Positions 3,906 through 11,220 of a DNA stretch of 61,330 bases are shown here, piece after piece (the stretch's first letter is position 1; each line of letters starts with the position of its first letter). Position numbers and translations under genes: made by a program. Source of the DNA: an uncultured Bacteroidales bacterium (GTDB taxonomy: Bacteria > Bacteroidota > Bacteroidia > Bacteroidales > Bacteroidaceae); contig CADBXO010000006.1 of assembly GCA_902798685.1 (NCBI GenBank), forward strand, positions 1 to 61,330, written 5' to 3'. Below the pieces are notes generated by a model that saw only the letters and a program-made list of their open reading frames with translations, was not told the DNA's origin and did no database searches.

Positions 3906-4958
3906 TTATTTCAGAAGTTCTGCGATTTTCTTTTCAAGGTCTTTGCCGCGCAGGTTGGTGGCTATGATCTTGCCGGTGCTTGCCTCAACCAGGAAGTTTG
4001 CCGGGATGGAGTTGATGTTGTACATCTTGGCTACCTCATTGTCCCAGTACTTGACATCACTCACGTGAATCCAGTTCATATCGTTGACCTTGATGGCATT
4101 GAGCCATGCGTCCTTTGAGCGGTCAAGTGATACTCCAAGGATCTGGAATCCCTTACCAAAGTATTTGCTGTATGTCTCCTTGAGGAAAGGAACCTCACGC
4201 ATGCAGGGGCCGCACCATGAAGCCCAGAAATCAATAAGAACGTACTTGACGTCGGGAGTAGCCAGAACATCCTTTGATGATATTACATTGCCGAACTGGT
4301 CTGTCTGGCTGAATTCAATATACTGCTTTCCGGGAGCGGTCTCCAGCTTCTTTTGGTTGCTTTCATCTATTGATTTCCACATCTCAGACTGGCGGACATC
4401 GGCAGTAAGGATATCAAGCAGGCTTCTGATGAGTTCGGGGTCCTCCTCGTAGGCAAGTTCCCTGAGGCAATAGACTGAGTATATCTTGTTGGGATACAGA
4501 GCTAAGCCGTCAATGAGTTTCTGGTGATATTTGGAATCAACCTCTTCCATTACGCCCTCCTGATCACGGTTCTTGTCATAATAGTCTGAGAGCTCATTCT
4601 CAAACTTGGTGAATTCGGTGATAAGGTCGTTTGACTTGCTGCCGGTAACATAGTATCCGTCAAACTCTGTTGAGGGGAATACTGACAGCAGGCCGGGTTC
4701 CAATGCAACCACGCAACTGTTTTTGGCACCACGGACGGTACGGGCATCGGCCACATATACTATCTGGGGGATAGCGGCATCGCCGTTGAATGTAAACTCA
4801 CCGTCTTTTACTGTAGTGGAATCTATTATCTTGTTTGAGCAGATAAGATAAACAGTCTTGGCATCAGAATCATTGAAGTTTCCGTGCAAGTAATAAGTGG
4901 TATTACCGGTGCATGCGGTCAGGACTGCTGCAAGAAGAATGTATAATGCTTTTTTCAT
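3906..4958 (-). CDS. TlpA-family thiol-disulfide lipoprotein with DUF4369 domain
   Basis: A 350-residue predicted lipoprotein: the signal sequence ends in the lipobox LTAC (Cys16). The N-terminal half is DUF4369-like. The C-terminal thioredoxin domain (about 215-350) has an intact active site, DFWASWCGPC, and the cis-proline segment NSIPANFLV. It should act in the periplasm as a thiol-disulfide reductase or as a resilience factor for envelope proteins; the target is unknown. It heads a two-gene reverse transcript with the flippase. A -7 box lies at 5007-5000 inside a 7-bp palindrome. Confidence 0.92.
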   Translation of the reverse strand: MKKALYILLAAVLTACTGNTTYYLHGNFNDSDAKTVYLICSNKIIDSTTVKDGEFTFNGDAAIPQIVYVADARTVRGAKNSCVVALEPGLLSVFPSTEFDGYYVTGSKSNDLITEFTKFENELSDYYDKNRDQEGVMEEVDSKYHQKLIDGLALYPNKIYSVYCLRELAYEEDPELIRSLLDILTADVRQSEMWKSIDESNQKKLETAPGKQYIEFSQTDQFGNVISSKDVLATPDVKYVLIDFWASWCGPCMREVPFLKETYSKYFGKGFQILGVSLDRSKDAWLNAIKVNDMNWIHVSDVKYWDNEVAKMYNINSIPANFLVEASTGKIIATNLRGKDLEKKIAELLK

Positions 4959-4999: not shown

Positions 5000-5019
5000 C
5001 AAAGTTATATACTAACTTT
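5000..5019 (-). promoter_or_regulatory. -7 promoter box inside a palindrome, upstream of the TlpA-flippase pair
   Basis: On the minus strand TAACTTTG (5007-5000) matches the -7 consensus, about 40 bases before the start codon at 4958. It lies in the perfect inverted repeat AAAGTTA (5001-5007) / TAACTTT (5013-5019), which could be an operator. No convincing -33 box was found. Confidence 0.45.
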
Positions 5020-5082
5020 ATATATAGCACTAAAAGGGGCCGAACTATTTGAAAAAAAACGATAAAAATAGTTCTGAATTTG

Positions 5083-5113
5083 TTGCACGTAAAAAATCCA
5101 AACTCTATATTTG
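5083..5113 (+). promoter_or_regulatory. Promoter in the gene-free stretch 4959-5694
   Basis: TTG at 5083-5085, 20 nt, then TATATTTG at 5106-5113 matches the Bacteroidetes promoter. Transcription would start near 5120, just ahead of a terminator-like hairpin, so it may make a short RNA or a leader for the operon starting at 5695. Confidence 0.55.
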
Positions 5114-5119
5114 CAACAC

Positions 5120-5180
5120 AAACGAATTGAAAAGTCGCATGCTTAGATTGTAAAGACAGTTCTAAGATGTGACTTTTTTT
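5120..5180 (+). ncRNA. Putative short RNA or attenuator ending in an intrinsic terminator
   Basis: The segment AAAGTCGCATGCTTAGA (5131-5147) pairs with TCTAAGATGTGACTTT (5161-5176), with one bulge and one G-U pair, across a 13-nt loop. T runs from 5174 to 5180. With the promoter at 5083-5113 this predicts a transcript of about 60 nt. The downstream operon begins only at 5695. Whether this is a free small RNA or a premature-termination leader cannot be told from sequence. Confidence 0.45.
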
Positions 5181-5294
5181 ATTTGCTGATTATTAACTGA
5201 TCTTCTACCGATTGATGTATAGATTATTCGTCAATATGATGACCTTGTTTGCGTCCTTTTCATCTCAGAGCTACAATTCTGATTTGGATTATAG

Positions 5295-5340
5295 TCCCAA
5301 GCCGGCCTATGCAGAGAGGCCCGGTTTGGGATTTGTTTTG
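5295..5340 (+). terminator. Strong GC-rich hairpin followed by a T-rich segment
   Basis: TCCCAAGCCGGCCT (5295-5308) pairs with AGGCCCGGTTTGGGA (5317-5331) across an 8-nt loop, with one mismatch and one bulged base, then TTTGTTTT. It is terminator-like on the plus strand, in the gene-free stretch ahead of the 5695 operon. It may also be part of a longer structured leader. Confidence 0.5.
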
Positions 5341-5434
5341 CGTGTCCATAAATTACTTTCATCTGCACTTTTAGTACCCGTTGGAAAACACACCCGTAAC
5401 ACGTTGAAAGACACAAATGTCCCAGCTGTTTCGG

Positions 5435-5499
5435 CCACCCGTACCGGTCAGGACCTACATTCATTTGGTATCAGGCAAGGTCCTGATCCGGACGGTTGG
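5435..5499. repeat. Long imperfect inverted repeat (about 22-bp arms)
   Basis: The arms at 5435-5456 and 5478-5499 pair over about 22 positions with two mismatches and one bulge; the inner 9 bp (TCAGGACCT/AGGTCCTGA) are perfect. The loop is 21 nt. There is no T-run, so it is not an obvious terminator; a structured RNA element or protein site is possible. Beyond the hairpins listed, nothing gene-like was seen in 4959-5694. Confidence 0.5.
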
Positions 5500-5694
5500 G
5501 AAACTTGAGAGCTGTTATCAGGATCTGGAATCAGAATGAGAAAACACACACAGTTACTCTTGCAAAGTACCATGCTAACACCCATAAAGGTTCAAGTCCT
5601 ATGTTTAACCTAAAATCTTCATACCGCAAAGAGAGGCATATTTTATCATGACAAACATTTATAATTAATTACAACAACCTAAAAACTAAAAACA

Positions 5695-6255
5695 ATGAAA
5701 ATAAAAACTCTTATAGCAATATCCGCCTCGATTCTGGTTATTGGGGCAAACCTGTTTGTAATCTCTGCAAAGCAGGGCAGTGTAAACAGCAAAGTACTTC
5801 TTTCTAAGGTCTTTTCCTTTAATCATTTTGCTTACGCAACAGATCCGGGCTTTTATGGTGACTATTCCGGTCCGACAGGATATGCGTACCCTAATGGTAT
5901 CGCTAATTGTAGTAATTTGGCGCCGGAATCATATGATATAGATGTTACCCTCACTTCTAATTCGGGACAAAAACTGAGTAAATATTTAGGTGGAGAGGGA
6001 AGTCTTAGTACGAGTGGTTTACGTTTTGTTAATGGCAATATCAAAGTAGAAGGGGGACACAGTTCCGATAATTCATCGGGCAACACTACAACTTCAAGGA
6101 TAAAAGGTACAATGTATGTTGATGTGTCAGCTGCCAGACCTCAGTATATCTATTGTGACTATTCGGACTTTACACCATGTGTAGAACATACTGATCCTTG
6201 CAATGAATTAAAAAGCCAATACTATAATGAGGCACTTAGTGCGTTCGGTTTTTAA
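5695..6255 (+). CDS. NVEALA-like secreted precursor protein, Cys-containing
   Basis: A 186-residue small exported protein. A basic start (MKIKT) and hydrophobic segment (about 6-24) form a signal or anchor. A spacer of about 20 residues then leads to NHFAYA (43-48). This layout resembles Bacteroidetes NVEALA peptides, whose motif also ends in Ala-x-Ala. Cleavage after AYA48 would give a mature part of about 138 residues, rich in Ser, Thr, Asn, Gly and Tyr, with four Cys (72, 154, 162, 169) and a C-terminal Phe. It is the first gene of a five-gene operon that includes a CxxC protein and a signal peptidase I. Function is unknown; the NVEALA link is by layout, not close identity. Confidence 0.65.
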   Translation: MKIKTLIAISASILVIGANLFVISAKQGSVNSKVLLSKVFSFNHFAYATDPGFYGDYSGPTGYAYPNGIANCSNLAPESYDIDVTLTSNSGQKLSKYLGGEGSLSTSGLRFVNGNIKVEGGHSSDNSSGNTTTSRIKGTMYVDVSAARPQYIYCDYSDFTPCVEHTDPCNELKSQYYNEALSAFGF

Positions 6256-6266
6256 TAGATATATAA

Positions 6267-7469
6267 ATGAAAAGAATACTTAATTATTTGTTCTTTGCGA
6301 GCCTGTCATTAAGTATTTCGTGTAACCATTTGAGTAATTCTGCTGAGGCAGATTACTCAAATGTTACTCAGATACAGTATGATGAAAAGGCGGAGAGTGT
6401 GATAACGATTGATAAGATAGTAGATCGTTGCAGTTTTGTCAGATTGGAAACCGATAAGTCTAATCTGATAGGCAGAATAGATCAAATCCTAATATGTGAT
6501 TCACTTATTGTAGTTGTTGATCAACATATTGCGAAAGCGATATTTGTATTCAATCATGAAGGCAAATTCTTAAACCGTATTTCCAGATTAGGAAATGGTC
6601 ATGGAGAATATCTTTTAATCAATCATGTTGCAATCAATGACAAGAATGAGGTCTGTATCTTGGATAATATTAAAGAGCGTCTACTAAAATTTGATATTAC
6701 CGGAGATTTGGTTGCTTCTCAAGATCTGCCGTTTAAGAGTGCTAAGTTCGAATTTTTAGGTAATGATTATATCCTGTTTGATGTAGAGAAATGCAGTCCT
6801 CTTGATTCATCCGTTGAAGATGATGTTGAAAAGTCGTGTTATCTGTTGACAGACTCGGAACTTAATATCAAATATACGTTTGGTAAAGATCCCTCGTATA
6901 AAAACTCCTCATTTCTACGTTATACCGAAGCCTTTTTAAAAACTGACGGGAAAATATATGGAAGGTTGAATCTTGGCAATACTATTTTTGAATTTGGTAC
7001 TGACTCAGTTAAAGCGATATATGAATTATCTCTAAAAGATGATGTCCTATATGCTCCGTCAATTGAAGACTTGTCAACCGAGGGCTTATATACAGAAAAG
7101 AGGCTGAAACAACCATCATTCTCCGGATGTTTCCATGTTTGCAAGGATTACTCTTGCTATAAAATGATGTTTCCGGAAAGGAAGTTATTGTACACTTGGT
7201 TTTTCAAGTCAAACAAGACAGGATCAATTCTGACACTATCTACAGAATCAGATGATCCGGTTCTGAGGTGTTTCGACAATCCTCTTGTAAGATGGAGCGA
7301 TAACACATTGGTTCAGGATATTTCTCCTACCACCTTGTTGGCCCGCAAGGATGATATCCTTTCAAACAGCATGGTAGAAAATCCGGAGGCTTTGTTTGAC
7401 GGCTTGACTTTAGAGGATAATCCCGTCCTGTTCTTCTATACATTCAACCCTGATAAGGTGGACAAGTGA
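6267..7469 (+). CDS. Six-bladed beta-propeller lipoprotein (DUF4934-like)
   Basis: A 400-residue predicted lipoprotein with a signal peptide ending in LSISC (Cys19). The body shows the spaced hydrophobic strands of the Bacteroidetes six-bladed propeller family: VRLETDKSNLIGRIDQILI, then DSLIVVVD, then IFVFNHEGKFLNRI, then G-x-G-x-G-E-Y. Members commonly accompany NVEALA-type small proteins in Bacteroides. A surface or periplasmic binding role toward the precursor at 5695 is inferred. The gene starts 11 bases after the precursor and one base separates it from the next gene. A second family member is at 36431. Confidence 0.8.
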   Translation: MKRILNYLFFASLSLSISCNHLSNSAEADYSNVTQIQYDEKAESVITIDKIVDRCSFVRLETDKSNLIGRIDQILICDSLIVVVDQHIAKAIFVFNHEGKFLNRISRLGNGHGEYLLINHVAINDKNEVCILDNIKERLLKFDITGDLVASQDLPFKSAKFEFLGNDYILFDVEKCSPLDSSVEDDVEKSCYLLTDSELNIKYTFGKDPSYKNSSFLRYTEAFLKTDGKIYGRLNLGNTIFEFGTDSVKAIYELSLKDDVLYAPSIEDLSTEGLYTEKRLKQPSFSGCFHVCKDYSCYKMMFPERKLLYTWFFKSNKTGSILTLSTESDDPVLRCFDNPLVRWSDNTLVQDISPTTLLARKDDILSNSMVENPEALFDGLTLEDNPVLFFYTFNPDKVDK

Positions 7470-7470
7470 T

Positions 7471-8073
7471 ATGAAAAGGCGCATTTATTGGATAATCAGT
7501 TGTGCCCTTTTGCTGATGTTCAATGTGGTTCTTTTGGCGGAAAGGACGGATGAAGTTGTGGCAGAGAATGTTGACAGCAACATAGGCGGGAGTGCCAGTT
7601 ATTCATATCAGTCATCATTCATCGATTTGTTGGAAAATGACGGTTTGCCCATTCAGGACATGGCGTTGTTGGATATTACGGACAACTCAGTAAAGGCATT
7701 GTCAGAACTGCTTGTTGATGATTCTGTCCTGTTTGTATGCAGAGTATCACAATTCCAATGTCAGGACTGTGCCGGTTATGCATTGGAAAAAGCTATAGAA
7801 CTGATAGAGAAAGATTCAACGGGAATGAAACTGTTGGTTGCCGGCGAGTATGAATACCGGTCTCTGAAGATATTTGTTGATGAACATCCTAACGTAAAAG
7901 GTTACGCCGTTTACCAGGTACCAATTATTGATCTGCCGATAGAAAACAGGACATATCCGTATTATTTCACTCTTTCAAAGGATATGGTGGCACATGATGT
8001 TTTTGTTCCGGAAGCAGACAGTCCTGTAAGGACAGAAATCTATTGGAATTATATTTCTAGGAAATGGAGATAA
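7471..8073 (+). CDS. Membrane-anchored thioredoxin-like protein with CxxC
   Basis: A 200-residue protein with an N-terminal hydrophobic segment (about 6-23), so probably tethered on the periplasmic side. The core SVLFVCRVSQFQCQDCAG has the beta strand and CxxC (Cys97-Cys100) expected at the active site of a thioredoxin fold, followed by a helix (YALEKAIELI). The rest is short compared with TlpA. No family name is certain. Its position beside a four-Cys secreted precursor suggests a disulfide role. It overlaps the next gene by 10 bases, indicating translational coupling. Confidence 0.6.
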   Translation: MKRRIYWIISCALLLMFNVVLLAERTDEVVAENVDSNIGGSASYSYQSSFIDLLENDGLPIQDMALLDITDNSVKALSELLVDDSVLFVCRVSQFQCQDCAGYALEKAIELIEKDSTGMKLLVAGEYEYRSLKIFVDEHPNVKGYAVYQVPIIDLPIENRTYPYYFTLSKDMVAHDVFVPEADSPVRTEIYWNYISRKWR

Positions 8074-9734
8074 ACCGTAAGAACAGGACAATGCCATGTT
8101 TCCTGTGGACGGTTCAAGATATTGTTGTCGTGGCTCTGTTCATGTATATGCGTTACACAAACAAGAGTCAAGGGGATGATGTGTCTGTCATGCTGTTTTC
8201 ATGGGTGAACTTGCTTTTTGCAGGCTATTTTGTGTTGAGGTTGCTGTTTCATGCAGGAGGTAAGGTCGCACAAAAACTCGTTCTGCTAGTGATTGGGGCT
8301 GTAGCCTGCTACGAGTCTTTCCTGTCCCTTTTGCAGATAATAGGTGTGGCGAAGTCAAACAATTATCTGTTCATATGCACCGGAACATTTGATAATCCAG
8401 GTCCGATGGGCGGGTTTCTGGCAATAGGTCTATGTATCTCATTGGCTGAGATCTTTTTGATAAGGCAACAAGGCGGATCAAAACCGTCTTTGACTCTTGA
8501 CAGAATATTATTGGGGATATCATATCTTACAGTTGTTCTTTGTGTCATAATACTGCCATCCACTCAAAGTCGTGCAGCATGGCTGTCAGTAATGGTTTCA
8601 GTGTTTTTCTATTGCCTTAAAAAGCCCAAGACTCTTGCTTGGATAAAGACTCATTGGTCCGTTACCCTTATTTGCATTACAGTTCTTCTGTCATCTGTCT
8701 TCATTTTCAAACGTCCGTCTGCTAACGGAAGGCTTTTTACCTATAAGATAGAGTTGAAGACAATCGTAAGAAACGGTCTCAATGGAGTGGGGATGGGCCA
8801 TTTCTCAAACGCATACGGGATAACCCAAAGAGAGTTTTTTTCAAAGAACGTAGATATCAGGGAAGGCCGATTGATATACGATGAGTCTGACAGAGACAGG
8901 GTATGTGCCGATAATCCCAGGGTTGGTTTCAATGAATACTTACAGTTCGGAATAGAATTTGGCGTAGGCCCTTTGTTCCTTTTTCTGTCATTAGTCTTGA
9001 TGATTCTGTGCCGGTTATCCCAAATGCATTCTCCTTTCTTTTATGGAATGGTAAGTATGCTTGTGTTTGCCTTCTTTTCTTATCCGTTTTCATTATGGGA
9101 GTTTCTAGTTATCTTTCTTGTCTGTGCGGCAATTGCGGGTTGTAAACCTGACATGTCCGGTTCTTCAGTAGCAAGCAGTCTGCTGTTTGCCTTAGGTTGT
9201 TTTGTTCCGGTTGCTGTTTTCCATAAAAGCGCCGATACCGTCAGGATATCAAATGAAACTGAAAAACTGTGGAAACGGCAGAGACCTCTCTTTGATTCCG
9301 GTGATTATGGGTCTTATGAGTATTGTTGTTCACAATTGTATCCAGACCTGCAGTTGAACTGTGCATTCCTGTATGAGTATGCGTACTCCCTATTTGAAAA
9401 CGGAAAGACAGATGAAAGCGAAAAGGTATTAAACCAGAGCCTGGCATTGAGCGGAAATCCTTTGTCATTCATTCTGCTGGGTGATATTCACAAGAAACAG
9501 GGACTGATAGCTGAAGCTGAAAATGATTATTACAATTCTTTTCTGGCTATACCTGACAGACTCTATCCGCTGTATAAACTGACAGTTCTGTACTATGACA
9601 GCAATCAGGAGGAAAAGTATCAGAATATGGTCCGCAGCATTGAAGAATTCCATCCCAGAATAGAATCCGAATCAACAAATCAGATTCGGGAATTGTTGAA
9701 CAGTCTTAGATACAGGCATGATAAAACGATGTAA
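8064..9734 (+). CDS. O-antigen-ligase-like (Wzy_C) membrane protein with C-terminal TPR region
   Basis: A 556-residue polytopic membrane protein with about 10-12 hydrophobic segments up to about residue 385, followed by a soluble TPR-like region (about 400-545). The segment FDNPGPMGGFLAIG and the later STQSRAAWLS are characteristic of the Wzy_C/O-antigen ligase family in Bacteroidetes. This family transfers lipid-linked glycans, and PglL-type relatives glycosylate secreted proteins. No glycan synthesis genes are present here, so the acceptor may be the operon's own precursor, but this is inference. It overlaps both neighbours (10 and 17 bases). Confidence 0.8.
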   Translation: MEINRKNRTMPCFLWTVQDIVVVALFMYMRYTNKSQGDDVSVMLFSWVNLLFAGYFVLRLLFHAGGKVAQKLVLLVIGAVACYESFLSLLQIIGVAKSNNYLFICTGTFDNPGPMGGFLAIGLCISLAEIFLIRQQGGSKPSLTLDRILLGISYLTVVLCVIILPSTQSRAAWLSVMVSVFFYCLKKPKTLAWIKTHWSVTLICITVLLSSVFIFKRPSANGRLFTYKIELKTIVRNGLNGVGMGHFSNAYGITQREFFSKNVDIREGRLIYDESDRDRVCADNPRVGFNEYLQFGIEFGVGPLFLFLSLVLMILCRLSQMHSPFFYGMVSMLVFAFFSYPFSLWEFLVIFLVCAAIAGCKPDMSGSSVASSLLFALGCFVPVAVFHKSADTVRISNETEKLWKRQRPLFDSGDYGSYEYCCSQLYPDLQLNCAFLYEYAYSLFENGKTDESEKVLNQSLALSGNPLSFILLGDIHKKQGLIAEAENDYYNSFLAIPDRLYPLYKLTVLYYDSNQEEKYQNMVRSIEEFHPRIESESTNQIRELLNSLRYRHDKTM

Positions 9735-10479
9735 GGTCTACGGGTTTGCGGTAATTGCATTATATGCTGTCTTCCGTTTATTCGTCTGTTTGAAGTATAC
9801 CATCCTTACAGGATCAATGCTCCCGACTATAAAGGTCGAAGAATCTGTTTATGTCTGGAAACCTTTGTACGGATGGAGATTCTATGACTTCCGGCCCAAA
9901 AGTTCGGATCATTTCTTTAGGATTCATGGAATTAGGGACATTGTACCGGGGGATGTGATCCTGTTCAACTTGCCTTATATCGGAAACAACATAGAAAAGA
10001 TTGCATTTAATCCGGAAGTGGAGTACTGTAAGCGGGTGCTTGGACGACCGGGAGACAGGATAGGGGCGGTTGACGGACATTGCTGGAATGACCGGTTTCT
10101 GAAACCCGTTGGGGTGGTTGATGAGCAGGAAAAACTTCGTTGGATGTTTGACGGCTTTTTCAGGATGACAAACAGCTATGAGGTCATTCCGTACTCTGAT
10201 TCAGATTGGAATATTAAGAACTGGGGTCCGGTTATTGTGCCGGCAAAAGGGCTTACAATGATTCTGGATGATTTCACACGTGAGCTGTATCGTAAGGTGA
10301 TTGAATATGAGACAGGCGAGCCGTTGGATATAACGTTGAATGAGTACACATTCCAAAAGGATTATTATTTCGCGGTGGGTGATAATGCGATGTCGTCATT
10401 TGACTCGCGCTATTGGGGGTTTATCCCGGAGGATTACATAATCGGAATTGTGGGAGGCAAGAGATTTCGGAACAAATAA
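9718..10479 (+). CDS. Signal peptidase I (S26 family), operon-specific
   Basis: A 253-residue membrane peptidase with one N-terminal transmembrane segment (about 9-27). Catalytic Ser33 lies in GSMLPT, catalytic Lys105 in CKRVLGRPGD, and the family box GDNAMSSFDSRYWGFIP at 221-237 is intact, so it should be active on the outer face of the inner membrane. The housekeeping Lep normally sits elsewhere; this copy is the last gene of the precursor/propeller/CxxC/Wzy_C operon and starts 17 bases inside the Wzy_C gene. That location suggests a dedicated role, perhaps cutting the precursor at AYA48. Confidence 0.9.
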   Translation: MIKRCKVYGFAVIALYAVFRLFVCLKYTILTGSMLPTIKVEESVYVWKPLYGWRFYDFRPKSSDHFFRIHGIRDIVPGDVILFNLPYIGNNIEKIAFNPEVEYCKRVLGRPGDRIGAVDGHCWNDRFLKPVGVVDEQEKLRWMFDGFFRMTNSYEVIPYSDSDWNIKNWGPVIVPAKGLTMILDDFTRELYRKVIEYETGEPLDITLNEYTFQKDYYFAVGDNAMSSFDSRYWGFIPEDYIIGIVGGKRFRNK

Positions 10480-10512: not shown

Positions 10513-11220
10513 ATGGGACTTATTCTTAAGAAACGCTTTCTATTGGTGGCACTATACCTGTTTTGCTTTATTCCTTTGGCTTTCTCACAATCGGCTCATG
10601 CTTTGTACATGAAGGACGGCAGTAGAATTATCGGACAGATTCTGGAGGTGGATTCCGTTAATAATGATATCAAGGTTCTTCTTGTTGACGGAACCAGGCT
10701 TTCTGTTCCCCAGAGTAGAGTTGAAGAGATAAACTGGTCTTTTGTCATAAGGAATACAGCTCCCGGCGCCATTTACAGATATGGCGATTCGTTCCGTTGG
10801 AAGTACAATGACACGGAGTTGTCCGATAAGAACTATGAAAAATACTTTGATGATGATCTGTATCATAACTATGTGACCGGCAGTAACATGTTCAACCTGG
10901 GCGGAGCCGGCCTGCTGTATGGTATCACCTGCGCGGTTATGACTGTATTGAGTTTTGATGCTAAGGCCGATCATCAAAGAGCAGCTTTCTTTGCATATGC
11001 CGGCGGCGCTGTCGTACTTACCGGTGCCGGCATTGTCTTAACCAAAAAAGGAAAGGATCGTCTGGACTGGGTGGAGAGAACGTTCAACAGCCGGAATGCT
11101 GCCGATAACGAGACGTCATTCTCTTCAAAAAGCAAAAGATCCATTCAACTGAATCCGTCATTTCTTATGACGGCTCAGCGTGACATGGGTGTGGGCGCTA
11201 CATTAAGTTTATCTTTCTAA
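10513..11220 (+). CDS. Secreted/outer-membrane hypothetical protein
   Basis: From ATG 10513 it encodes about 235 residues with a signal peptide ending near AFSQS. The N-terminal part (DGSRIIGQILEVDSVNNDI, then GTRLSVPQSRVEEI) resembles a small beta domain often seen at the front of Bacteroidetes envelope proteins. A hydrophobic, Gly/Ala-rich hairpin follows (about 125-175), and the chain ends in SLSF, the C-terminal Phe typical of outer-membrane proteins. No specific function is recognised. It lies behind the signal peptidase but appears to have its own promoter, so membership in that operon is uncertain. Confidence 0.6.
   Translation: MGLILKKRFLLVALYLFCFIPLAFSQSAHALYMKDGSRIIGQILEVDSVNNDIKVLLVDGTRLSVPQSRVEEINWSFVIRNTAPGAIYRYGDSFRWKYNDTELSDKNYEKYFDDDLYHNYVTGSNMFNLGGAGLLYGITCAVMTVLSFDAKADHQRAAFFAYAGGAVVLTGAGIVLTKKGKDRLDWVERTFNSRNAADNETSFSSKSKRSIQLNPSFLMTAQRDMGVGATLSLSF

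What the first reader, a model, noticed from the sequence alone, without database searches (positions are those of the whole stretch)
5695..10479. Candidate undescribed system: secreted Cys-containing precursor with its own maturation set
Seen: five tightly linked genes (gaps of 1-11 bases, or overlaps) encode a small exported NVEALA-like precursor with four Cys, a propeller lipoprotein, a membrane-tethered CxxC protein, a Wzy_C/O-antigen-ligase-like TPR membrane protein and a signal peptidase I with intact Ser33/Lys105. Known: Wzy_C relatives include protein O-oligosaccharyltransferases, and small NVEALA proteins are often next to propeller lipoproteins in Bacteroidetes. Inference: the operon exports, cleaves, oxidises and perhaps glycosylates its precursor, then displays or senses it through the propeller. 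The canonical Bacteroides O-glycosylation motif D-(S/T)-hydrophobic is absent from the mature part, so any sugar site would be non-canonical.
Basis: partly seen in the sequence, partly recalled or inferred. Interest (0 to 1): 0.82.

Follow-up and report, generated by a model that had tools for sequence, protein, structure and literature searches.

The report
Bacteroidales secreted Cys-protein maturation cassette
Gut and rumen Bacteroidales carry a recurring gene cassette that seems to export and trim small cysteine-containing proteins with its own signal peptidase, and whose interior has been swapped between strains; its ligase-like member lacks the usual catalytic histidine.

Summary
The five-gene operon is real and not a chance neighbourhood. 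Of 40 cassette-type signal-peptidase loci with at least 6 kb upstream, 28 have a leader-motif precursor, 30 a propeller, 30 a CxxC-family protein, 30 a Wzy_C protein, 22 all five; around 20 housekeeping LepB genes none occurs. Seven NVEALA matches found by Pfam model alone (2 of 7 over its cut-off) all have an adjacent propeller. Related cassettes hold true PF14055 NVEALA proteins; the window precursor, with an AYA-type motif, does not match that model. Motif type follows the peptidase tree, which points to the peptidase as processing enzyme. Glycosylation loses support: 32 of 32 cassette Wzy_C proteins (>=400 aa) have Phe/Tyr at the catalytic His column, where 15 of 30 further Wzy_C proteins of the order have His. 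Many cassettes include transglutaminase-like lipoproteins; the window keeps only a relic behind a promoter-like element and terminator-like hairpin. At this site the cassette interior was exchanged between lineages. Best reading: leader-directed export and maturation of variable small Cys proteins. Cleavage, disulfides and location are inferred; no structure could be predicted.

The parts
5083..5113 (+). Promoter-like element of Bacteroidetes type (TTG, about 20 bases, TATATTTG)
   Evidence: with the hairpin below in the window and 6 of 19 other loci looked at; the promoter type is recalled knowledge
5131..5180 (+). Terminator-like hairpin with T run about 17 bases after the promoter-like element; candidate attenuator
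   Evidence: kept in the 7 aligned loci; 2 of 20 pairs with double changes, covariation term +0.29, so covariation gives no support
5045..5503 (+). Relic of a transglutaminase-like lipoprotein gene: upstream region plus 5' end (5045-5307) and an internal piece (5353-5503); intact in L015
5695..6255 (+). Precursor, 186 aa; leader to Ala48 with motif FNHFAYA (residues 42-48); inferred mature part residues 49-186 with 4 Cys
6267..7469 (+). Six-bladed propeller lipoprotein (PF17170), 400 aa
7471..8073 (+). Membrane-anchored CxxC protein, 200 aa; C97 and C100 invariant
   Evidence: the anchor is read from the sequence
8064..9734 (+). Wzy_C/TPR membrane protein, 556 aa; Arg170 and Arg223 kept, Phe289 at the catalytic His column
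9718..10479 (+). Cassette signal peptidase I, 253 aa; Ser33/Lys105 intact; residues 1-100 vary with cassette type, 101-253 conserved at this site

Best explanation
The cassette is a leader-directed export and maturation pathway for small, variable, Cys-containing proteins. The precursor enters the membrane by its hydrophobic N-terminus and presents, about 20 residues beyond the hydrophobic core, an N(V/I)EAL- or AYA-type motif. The cassette's own signal peptidase I cleaves at that motif and releases the mature protein into the periplasm. The CxxC protein, anchored in the inner membrane, handles the Cys pairs. The propeller lipoprotein is the cognate partner that binds, guides or displays the product. 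The His-less Wzy_C/TPR protein is an inner-membrane platform that may still bind a polyprenyl-phosphate lipid but does not act as a canonical O-ligase. Transglutaminase-like lipoproteins complete many cassettes. Shown by sequence: gene set, co-occurrence, residues, co-variation of motif and peptidase, exchange of the interior. Inferred: cleavage and its site, disulfides, localisation, binding. The ecological role (surface layer, signal or antagonism) is open.
For: Co-occurrence: 22 of 40 with all five against 0 of 20 LepB controls. Seven PF14055 matches (E<=1e-3; 2 of 7 over the cut-off) have an adjacent propeller in 7 of 7; three of these (G047:C147, G031:C56, G028:C13) are not among the peptidase-chosen loci. 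Five F/Y-type Wzy_C genes not chosen through the SPase: NVEAL frames nearby in 3 of 5, any partner in 4 of 5, against 0 of 14 His-type loci. Ser/Lys dyad invariant in 12 of 12. Motif-based census: 44 precursors with charged start, hydrophobic core, spacer median 20.5 residues (12-29) and motif; 43 of 44 have Cys after it. The 9 SPases with AYA-type precursors form one branch of 52 (SH-aLRT 98; one change against 8.0 in shuffles, 0 of 500 as low), although their precursors fall into two groups (5 and 4 loci) without detectable similarity between them; the N-terminal half alone groups 8 of 8 (support about 90, not starred). Type A and type B cassettes share SPase residues 101-253 (72-87%) while precursor, propeller and CxxC protein show no tblastn match at E<=1e-3.
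Against: No experiment. Several leaders, the window's among them (VISA|KQG), have an ordinary-looking SPase I site right after the hydrophobic core, so LepB could cut first and the motif could be a pro-segment. The census picked precursors by the motif itself. 18 of 40 loci lack at least one of the five; L082 and L098 have none of the partners in the searched range, nor have L097, L105, L110 and L136 among the 12 loci with less upstream sequence. Loci of close relatives are not independent. The motif/SPase link could be plain linkage; the C-terminal half alone has support 0. 14 of 44 tails have an odd number of Cys and one has none. No thioredoxin family match for the 10 aligned CxxC proteins.
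Confidence: 0.6

Rival explanations
1. Glycoprotein system: the Wzy_C protein is a PglL-like O-oligosaccharyltransferase that glycosylates the precursor, as pilin-linked PglL proteins do.
For: Wzy_C matches in 7 of 9 members at E<=0.1, Arg170 in 31 of 32 and Arg223 in 32 of 32, gene near its likely acceptor, as in 21 of 31 PglL cases (PMC3643930 section 15).
Against: The column of the catalytic His (WaaL H338/PglL H349) is Phe (28) or Tyr (4) in 32 of 32 cassette proteins of at least 400 aa, while 15 of 30 further Wzy_C proteins from 13 genomes have His there. An H324A PglS served as inactive control in PMC12800693 (passages). No D-(S/T)-hydrophobic motif in the inferred mature part.
Confidence: 0.1
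2. The precursor is an ordinary secreted protein cut by LepB after its hydrophobic core; the motif is a pro-segment read by another partner (propeller or Wzy_C), and the linked SPase serves other clients.
For: Ordinary-looking sites such as VISA|KQG in the window leader (read from the sequence); SPase loci without detected precursor exist (12 of 40).
Against: SPase clade and motif type change together; none of 20 LepB genes neighbours these families.
Confidence: 0.17
3. Antagonism or signalling pair: the mature Cys protein is a bacteriocin or pheromone and the propeller lipoprotein is its immunity or receptor protein; maturation is as in the main reading.
For: Precursor-propeller adjacency 7 of 7; exchange of the interior at one site; two different precursors in tandem in some loci.
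Against: No toxin or defence model over a cut-off. Weak hits seen: window CxxC protein to a methyltransferase model of PADLOC (E 0.0096), the L016 precursor to Ntox16 (E 0.79), one L012 precursor to Atracotoxin (18.2 bits against 25), all chance-like. Variation alone also fits surface antigens.
Confidence: 0.2
4. Chance neighbours without joint function.
For: Partners are missing in part of the loci.
Against: The gene set recurs, in varying order, beside the peptidase in seven families of the order, with at least one partner in each; operon-like gaps in the window; controls at zero.
Confidence: 0.02

Closest known systems
PF14055 NVEALA proteins
   Same: Position in the cassette and leader layout; true members sit in related cassettes (of 10 chosen N-x-E-A-type precursors all match at E<=0.01, 6 over the cut-off)
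   Different: The window precursor does not match the model and has FNHFAYA in place of NVEALA; its tail is longer than in those members
SipW-TasA (Bacillus matrix fibre with a dedicated signal peptidase; recalled, seen only in a search listing)
   Same: Small secreted proteins with their own type I signal peptidase in one operon
   Different: Gram-negative host, leader motif far from the membrane, extra propeller, CxxC, Wzy_C and transglutaminase-like partners; no sequence link tested
PglL/TfpO pilin O-oligosaccharyltransferases (PMC3643930, section 15 and passages read)
   Same: Wzy_C membrane protein beside a small secreted protein; Arg residues kept
   Different: Catalytic His replaced by Phe/Tyr; no pilin match for the window precursor
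PEP-CTERM/exosortase and similar sorting systems (recalled)
   Same: Constant sorting signal joined to variable passengers, with a dedicated membrane protease; window propeller and TPR protein have far-below-cut-off hits to two PEP-CTERM-linked models
   Different: Signal is N-terminal and the protease is an S26 signal peptidase
Bacteroides thetaiotaomicron BT0662-BT0667 (PMC10434189, passages only)
   Same: Annotations O-antigen ligase (BT0662), 6-bladed propeller (BT0664) and signal peptidase I (BT0667) close together
   Different: Sequences not compared here; the passages seen are lists of expression changes

Membership tests
PF14055 NVEALA | Match to the curated model | tested here: not met
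   0 families at E<=1 for the window precursor; 0 of 6 AYA-type precursors match NVEALA
PF14055 NVEALA | Signal-like N-terminus, spacer, conserved motif, Cys-containing tail | tested here: inconclusive
   layout shared in the census of 44, but the motif itself differs
Signal peptidase I (S26) | Family model and Ser/Lys dyad | tested here: met
Signal peptidase I (S26) | Cleavage of the linked precursor | not testable with these tools
   needs experiment
PglL/WaaL O-ligase | Wzy_C model at curated cut-off | tested here: inconclusive
   24.8 bits against 31.7 in the protein scan; over it in the genome scan with neighbours in the frame joined (35.5)
PglL/WaaL O-ligase | Catalytic His (WaaL H338, PglL H349) | tested here: not met
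   Phe289 in the window; Phe/Tyr in 32 of 32, His in 15 of 30 further proteins; placed by alignment, not by structure
PglL/WaaL O-ligase | Conserved Arg residues in the Wzy_C region | tested here: inconclusive
   Arg170 31 of 32, Arg223 32 of 32; their match to WaaL R215 and R288 was not shown
DUF5128 propeller | Match to PF17170 | tested here: met
   131.4 bits, cut-off 22.9
Thioredoxin superfamily (CxxC protein) | Match to a thioredoxin family or fold | tested here: inconclusive
   no such match for the 10 aligned; AhpC-TSA 21.7 bits against 26 for one member of a related cassette; structure jobs failed
Bacteroides general O-glycosylation client | D-(S/T)-hydrophobic motif in the mature part | tested here: not met
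   read from the translation
PEP-CTERM/exosortase | PEP-CTERM or exosortase model over its cut-off | tested here: not met
   only ScyF model 19.4 bits against 350 (propeller) and PrsT model 10.4 against 312.2 (TPR); no exosortase hit; six window proteins scanned

The most novel reading that the evidence does not exclude
Bacteroidales have an undescribed sorting pathway: a motif in an extended N-terminal leader sends many unrelated small Cys proteins to a co-evolving, dedicated signal peptidase and to a ligase-derived membrane protein that gave up its catalytic His for a conserved aromatic. The cargo module (precursor, propeller, CxxC protein) is exchanged as a block at fixed chromosomal sites, with joints inside the peptidase gene and in a shared upstream leader, so that strains switch their secreted protein.
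Probability: 0.42. Interest if true: 0.8.

Novelty: new variant of a known kind. Interest (0 to 1): 0.66.

Why it matters
NVEALA proteins (PF14055) are, as far as my searches show, an orphan family of Bacteroidales. Tying them to a dedicated signal peptidase, a propeller lipoprotein and a His-less ligase gives the family a testable pathway, possibly in laboratory Bacteroides thetaiotaomicron. A conserved loss of the catalytic His in a whole O-ligase subfamily also asks what this fold can do without ligation. Block exchange of the cargo would make it a strain-variable secreted trait of gut bacteria.

Tried and rejected
Rejected: protein glycosylation as the main reading (His lost). Rejected: a novel structured RNA in the whole 5000-5694 leader; most of it is the relic of a transglutaminase-like gene and Rfam has no match there; only the promoter-proximal hairpin remains as an RNA candidate. 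Not supported: defence or phage origin (one PADLOC hit at E 0.0096 and one PHROG of unknown function for the peptidase) and plasmid carriage of the precursor (no match). Led nowhere: solved-structure searches with the precursor (nothing), the Wzy_C profile (TPR hits in the 60 rows shown of 86) and the CxxC profile (five chance-like hits). Papers: NVEALA 0 papers; PF14055/PF17170/DUF5128/NVEAL nothing relevant in 6 listed; at least two of the BT_066x tags in 2 papers, of which only PMC10434189 concerns Bacteroides. That the cassette is undescribed rests on these searches of an open-access library only.

Weak points of my counts. The HMMs were built from members of these clusters, and three of the seven loci helped to build one propeller model; the controls used the same HMMs. 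'CxxC' joins three models and 'propeller' two; members were not each checked for CxxC. Precursors were found by the motif. In one search transglutaminase-like genes more than 6 kb upstream (for example L074, L079) were not counted. Of 36 listed Wzy_C matches, 30 became loci: 15 have His in the column, 8 Phe/Tyr, 7 another residue or a gap; in L152 a wrong frame was picked. 14 of the 15 His-type loci were fetched. Two of the five F/Y-type loci (L173, L176) lie on contigs that also carry a cassette peptidase 10-14 kb away. In one search shorter Wzy_C fragments (<400 aa) were left out. In one search, 16 of 52 peptidases were dropped because a cut pattern was not found, among them L106, one of nine AYA cases. 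In some searches the label of L029 was set by hand, variants such as DVKADA and NVEAK counted as N-x-E-A type, 21 of 52 rows had no label, and the trees are quick trees. A broken peptidase piece with four stops (G007:C30) was not examined. Lipobox patterns were found in 23 of 34 propellers and 20 of 28 transglutaminase-like proteins.
Full report
What is there. The five genes lie as described on the + strand between 5695 and 10479 with gaps of 11 and 1 bases and overlaps of 10 and 17. Family scans put the propeller (PF17170) and signal peptidase I (PF10502, TIGR02227) above their cut-offs; Wzy_C and TPR are weak, and the precursor and the CxxC protein match nothing convincing. Ser33 and Lys105 of the peptidase are invariant in the 12 aligned peptidases.

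Relatives. A scan of genome contigs with the peptidase gave 16 loci. L009-L018 are Bacteroidales genomes, by title mostly from rumen or reticulum and horse faeces; L019-L024 are distant peptidase matches. Eight of the ten (L009, L011-L016, L018) keep the order precursor, propeller, CxxC, Wzy_C, SPase; L010 lacks Wzy_C and L017 is a lone peptidase. The window's own genome has a second cassette (L029) with two NVEAL-type reading frames. Of 61 relatives, 33 of 37 genomes of the same genus and 1 of 24 from other families have the cassette-type peptidase; an even draw over the order found it in 10 of 295 genomes at E<=1e-32, in seven families. Outside the genus the order of genes varies: Wzy_C or the transglutaminase-like gene may follow the peptidase.

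Co-occurrence with controls. The 40 strong hits (38 fetched, 2 own) and 12 regions covering the 13 new hits make 52 loci, 40 of them with at least 6000 bases upstream. In those 40, within 6 kb upstream and 3 kb downstream: precursor 28, propeller 30, CxxC family 30, Wzy_C 30, transglutaminase-like 16, DUF1573 9, all five genes 22; L082 and L098 have none of the partners. Twenty LepB loci of the same genus: 0 of 20 for every partner. Many of the loci come from close relatives and are not independent. Two checks do not start from the peptidase. First, seven PF14055 matches in 6 of 61 genomes (2 over the cut-off) have an adjacent propeller gene in 7 of 7; four of these loci are also peptidase-chosen loci, three are not. 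Second, five F/Y-type Wzy_C loci chosen only through Wzy_C have NVEAL frames in 3 and any partner in 4, against 0 of 14 His-type loci. Labels were checked by Pfam on samples: DUF1573 over its cut-off in 3 of 3; the second propeller model gave PF17170 over its cut-off in one of two and TolB_like below it in the other; transglutaminase core below its cut-off in 4 of 4 long members.

The precursor. A census by motif gave 44 precursors: charged start, hydrophobic core, a spacer with median 20.5 residues (12-29), then an N(V/I)EAL-like or AYA-like motif, then a variable tail; 43 of 44 tails contain Cys, an even number above zero in 29 and an odd number in 14. Ten N-x-E-A-type ones chosen for Pfam all hit NVEALA at E<=0.01, six above the cut-off; those of L029 and L016 give E 0.012-0.023 or nothing, and that of L018 no NVEALA match. 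AYA-type precursors do not match NVEALA (0 of 6). The window precursor has FNHFAYA at residues 42-48 and belongs to the AYA group, so its kinship with NVEALA proteins rests on layout and place, not on a model match.

Peptidase and motif. In a tree of 52 peptidases the 9 with AYA-type precursors form one branch (SH-aLRT 98), and the label needs one change, against 8.0 in shuffles. The N-terminal half alone gives the same grouping with support about 90 (not starred), the C-terminal half with support 0; 36 of 52 peptidases could be cut for this. The nine precursor loci fall into two groups, five related to the window precursor (28-58% identity where measured) and four without detectable similarity to it. 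Motif and peptidase thus go together across unrelated tails. This is the best sequence evidence that the cassette peptidase reads the motif; linkage alone is not excluded.

The ligase-like protein. In 32 of 32 cassette Wzy_C proteins of at least 400 aa the column of the catalytic His holds Phe (28) or Tyr (4); Arg170 is kept in 31 and Arg223 in 32. Of 30 further Wzy_C proteins from the 13 genomes searched (three overlap with the cassette set), 15 have His in that column (AHSEYL, HNQFL and the like), 8 are F/Y-type (AFNEYL and the like) and 7 have another residue or a gap. The importance of that His (WaaL H338, PglL H349) is from PMC3643930 (section 15 read) and PMC12800693 (passages). In the own genome only the two cassette Wzy_C proteins were found (genome about 84% complete).

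The missing partner. In many cassettes one or two transglutaminase-like lipoproteins stand nearby; Cys245 and His278 (numbering of the L074 protein at 4708) are conserved in 27 of 28 long members. In the window only two pieces remain, 5045-5307 (upstream region and 5' end) and 5353-5503 (internal), 64% and 72% identical to the intact gene region of L015. The same relic is seen in L009, L012, L013, L014 and L106. In front lies a promoter-like element followed by a terminator-like hairpin, found in the window and in 6 of 19 other loci looked at, all six with this relic or, in L015, the intact gene; the alignment shows conservation but no net covariation support. Regulation by read-through is a guess, untested.

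Exchange of the cassette interior. The window, L009, L012, L013 and L014 share the genes upstream: GreA 98.7-100% by the rounded table (99-100%), HIT 98%, a polysaccharide-flippase-like protein and a TlpA-like protein; L106 shares the TlpA-like neighbour and the relic but not the genes before them in the stretch fetched. Downstream, L009, L012, L013 and L106 share the next two genes; the contig of L014 ends there. Precursor, propeller and CxxC protein of the window match L009 (58%, 76%, 79%) but not L012, L013, L014 or L106 (tblastn, E<=1e-3); Wzy_C is 77% against 27%. Peptidase residues 1-100 are 76% identical to L009 and have no match in L012 and L013 and 30-38% over part of the length in L014 and L106, while residues 101-253 are 72-88% identical throughout. 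The flanking genes reject a common branch of window and L009: downstream gene p 4e-141, TlpA-like p 7e-4, flippase-like p 0.009; the peptidase C-terminal half does not (p 0.18) (five or six rows each). I read this as exchange of the interior between lineages, with one joint inside the peptidase gene.

Conclusion. Export and maturation of a small variable Cys protein by a dedicated peptidase is the best reading (0.6). Glycosylation is unlikely with this ligase-like protein. No paper found in the searched library describes the set; PMC10434189 (passages) lists B. thetaiotaomicron genes with these annotations close together.

Noticed in passing
5083-5180: Promoter-like element followed directly by a terminator-like hairpin, in the window and 6 of 19 other loci looked at: a candidate attenuator of the cassette.
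   Followed up: partly
L029 5350-6064: The second cassette of the same genome has two near-identical NVEAL frames whose starts look disturbed; a short stretch is duplicated before the second. Assembly error or real change is open.
   Followed up: no
192-1367: TlpA-like protein with DUF4369 that lacks the CxxC found in its relative at 3906-4958 (WCGPC).
   Followed up: no
10513-11220: Conserved gene after the cassette with a weak match to a Leptospira N-terminal domain model (NF047433, 21.2 bits against 43); 90% identical to L013 but 63% to L009.
   Followed up: partly
L139, L140, L137: Precursor, propeller-sized and CxxC-like genes seem to repeat as triplets around one peptidase, as if each cargo had its own partners (read by eye; several of these genes matched no model).
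   Followed up: partly
L078 12024-12401 and similar: DUF1573 lipoprotein (PF07610 over its cut-off in 3 of 3 scanned) next to the cassette in 9 of 40 loci.
   Followed up: partly
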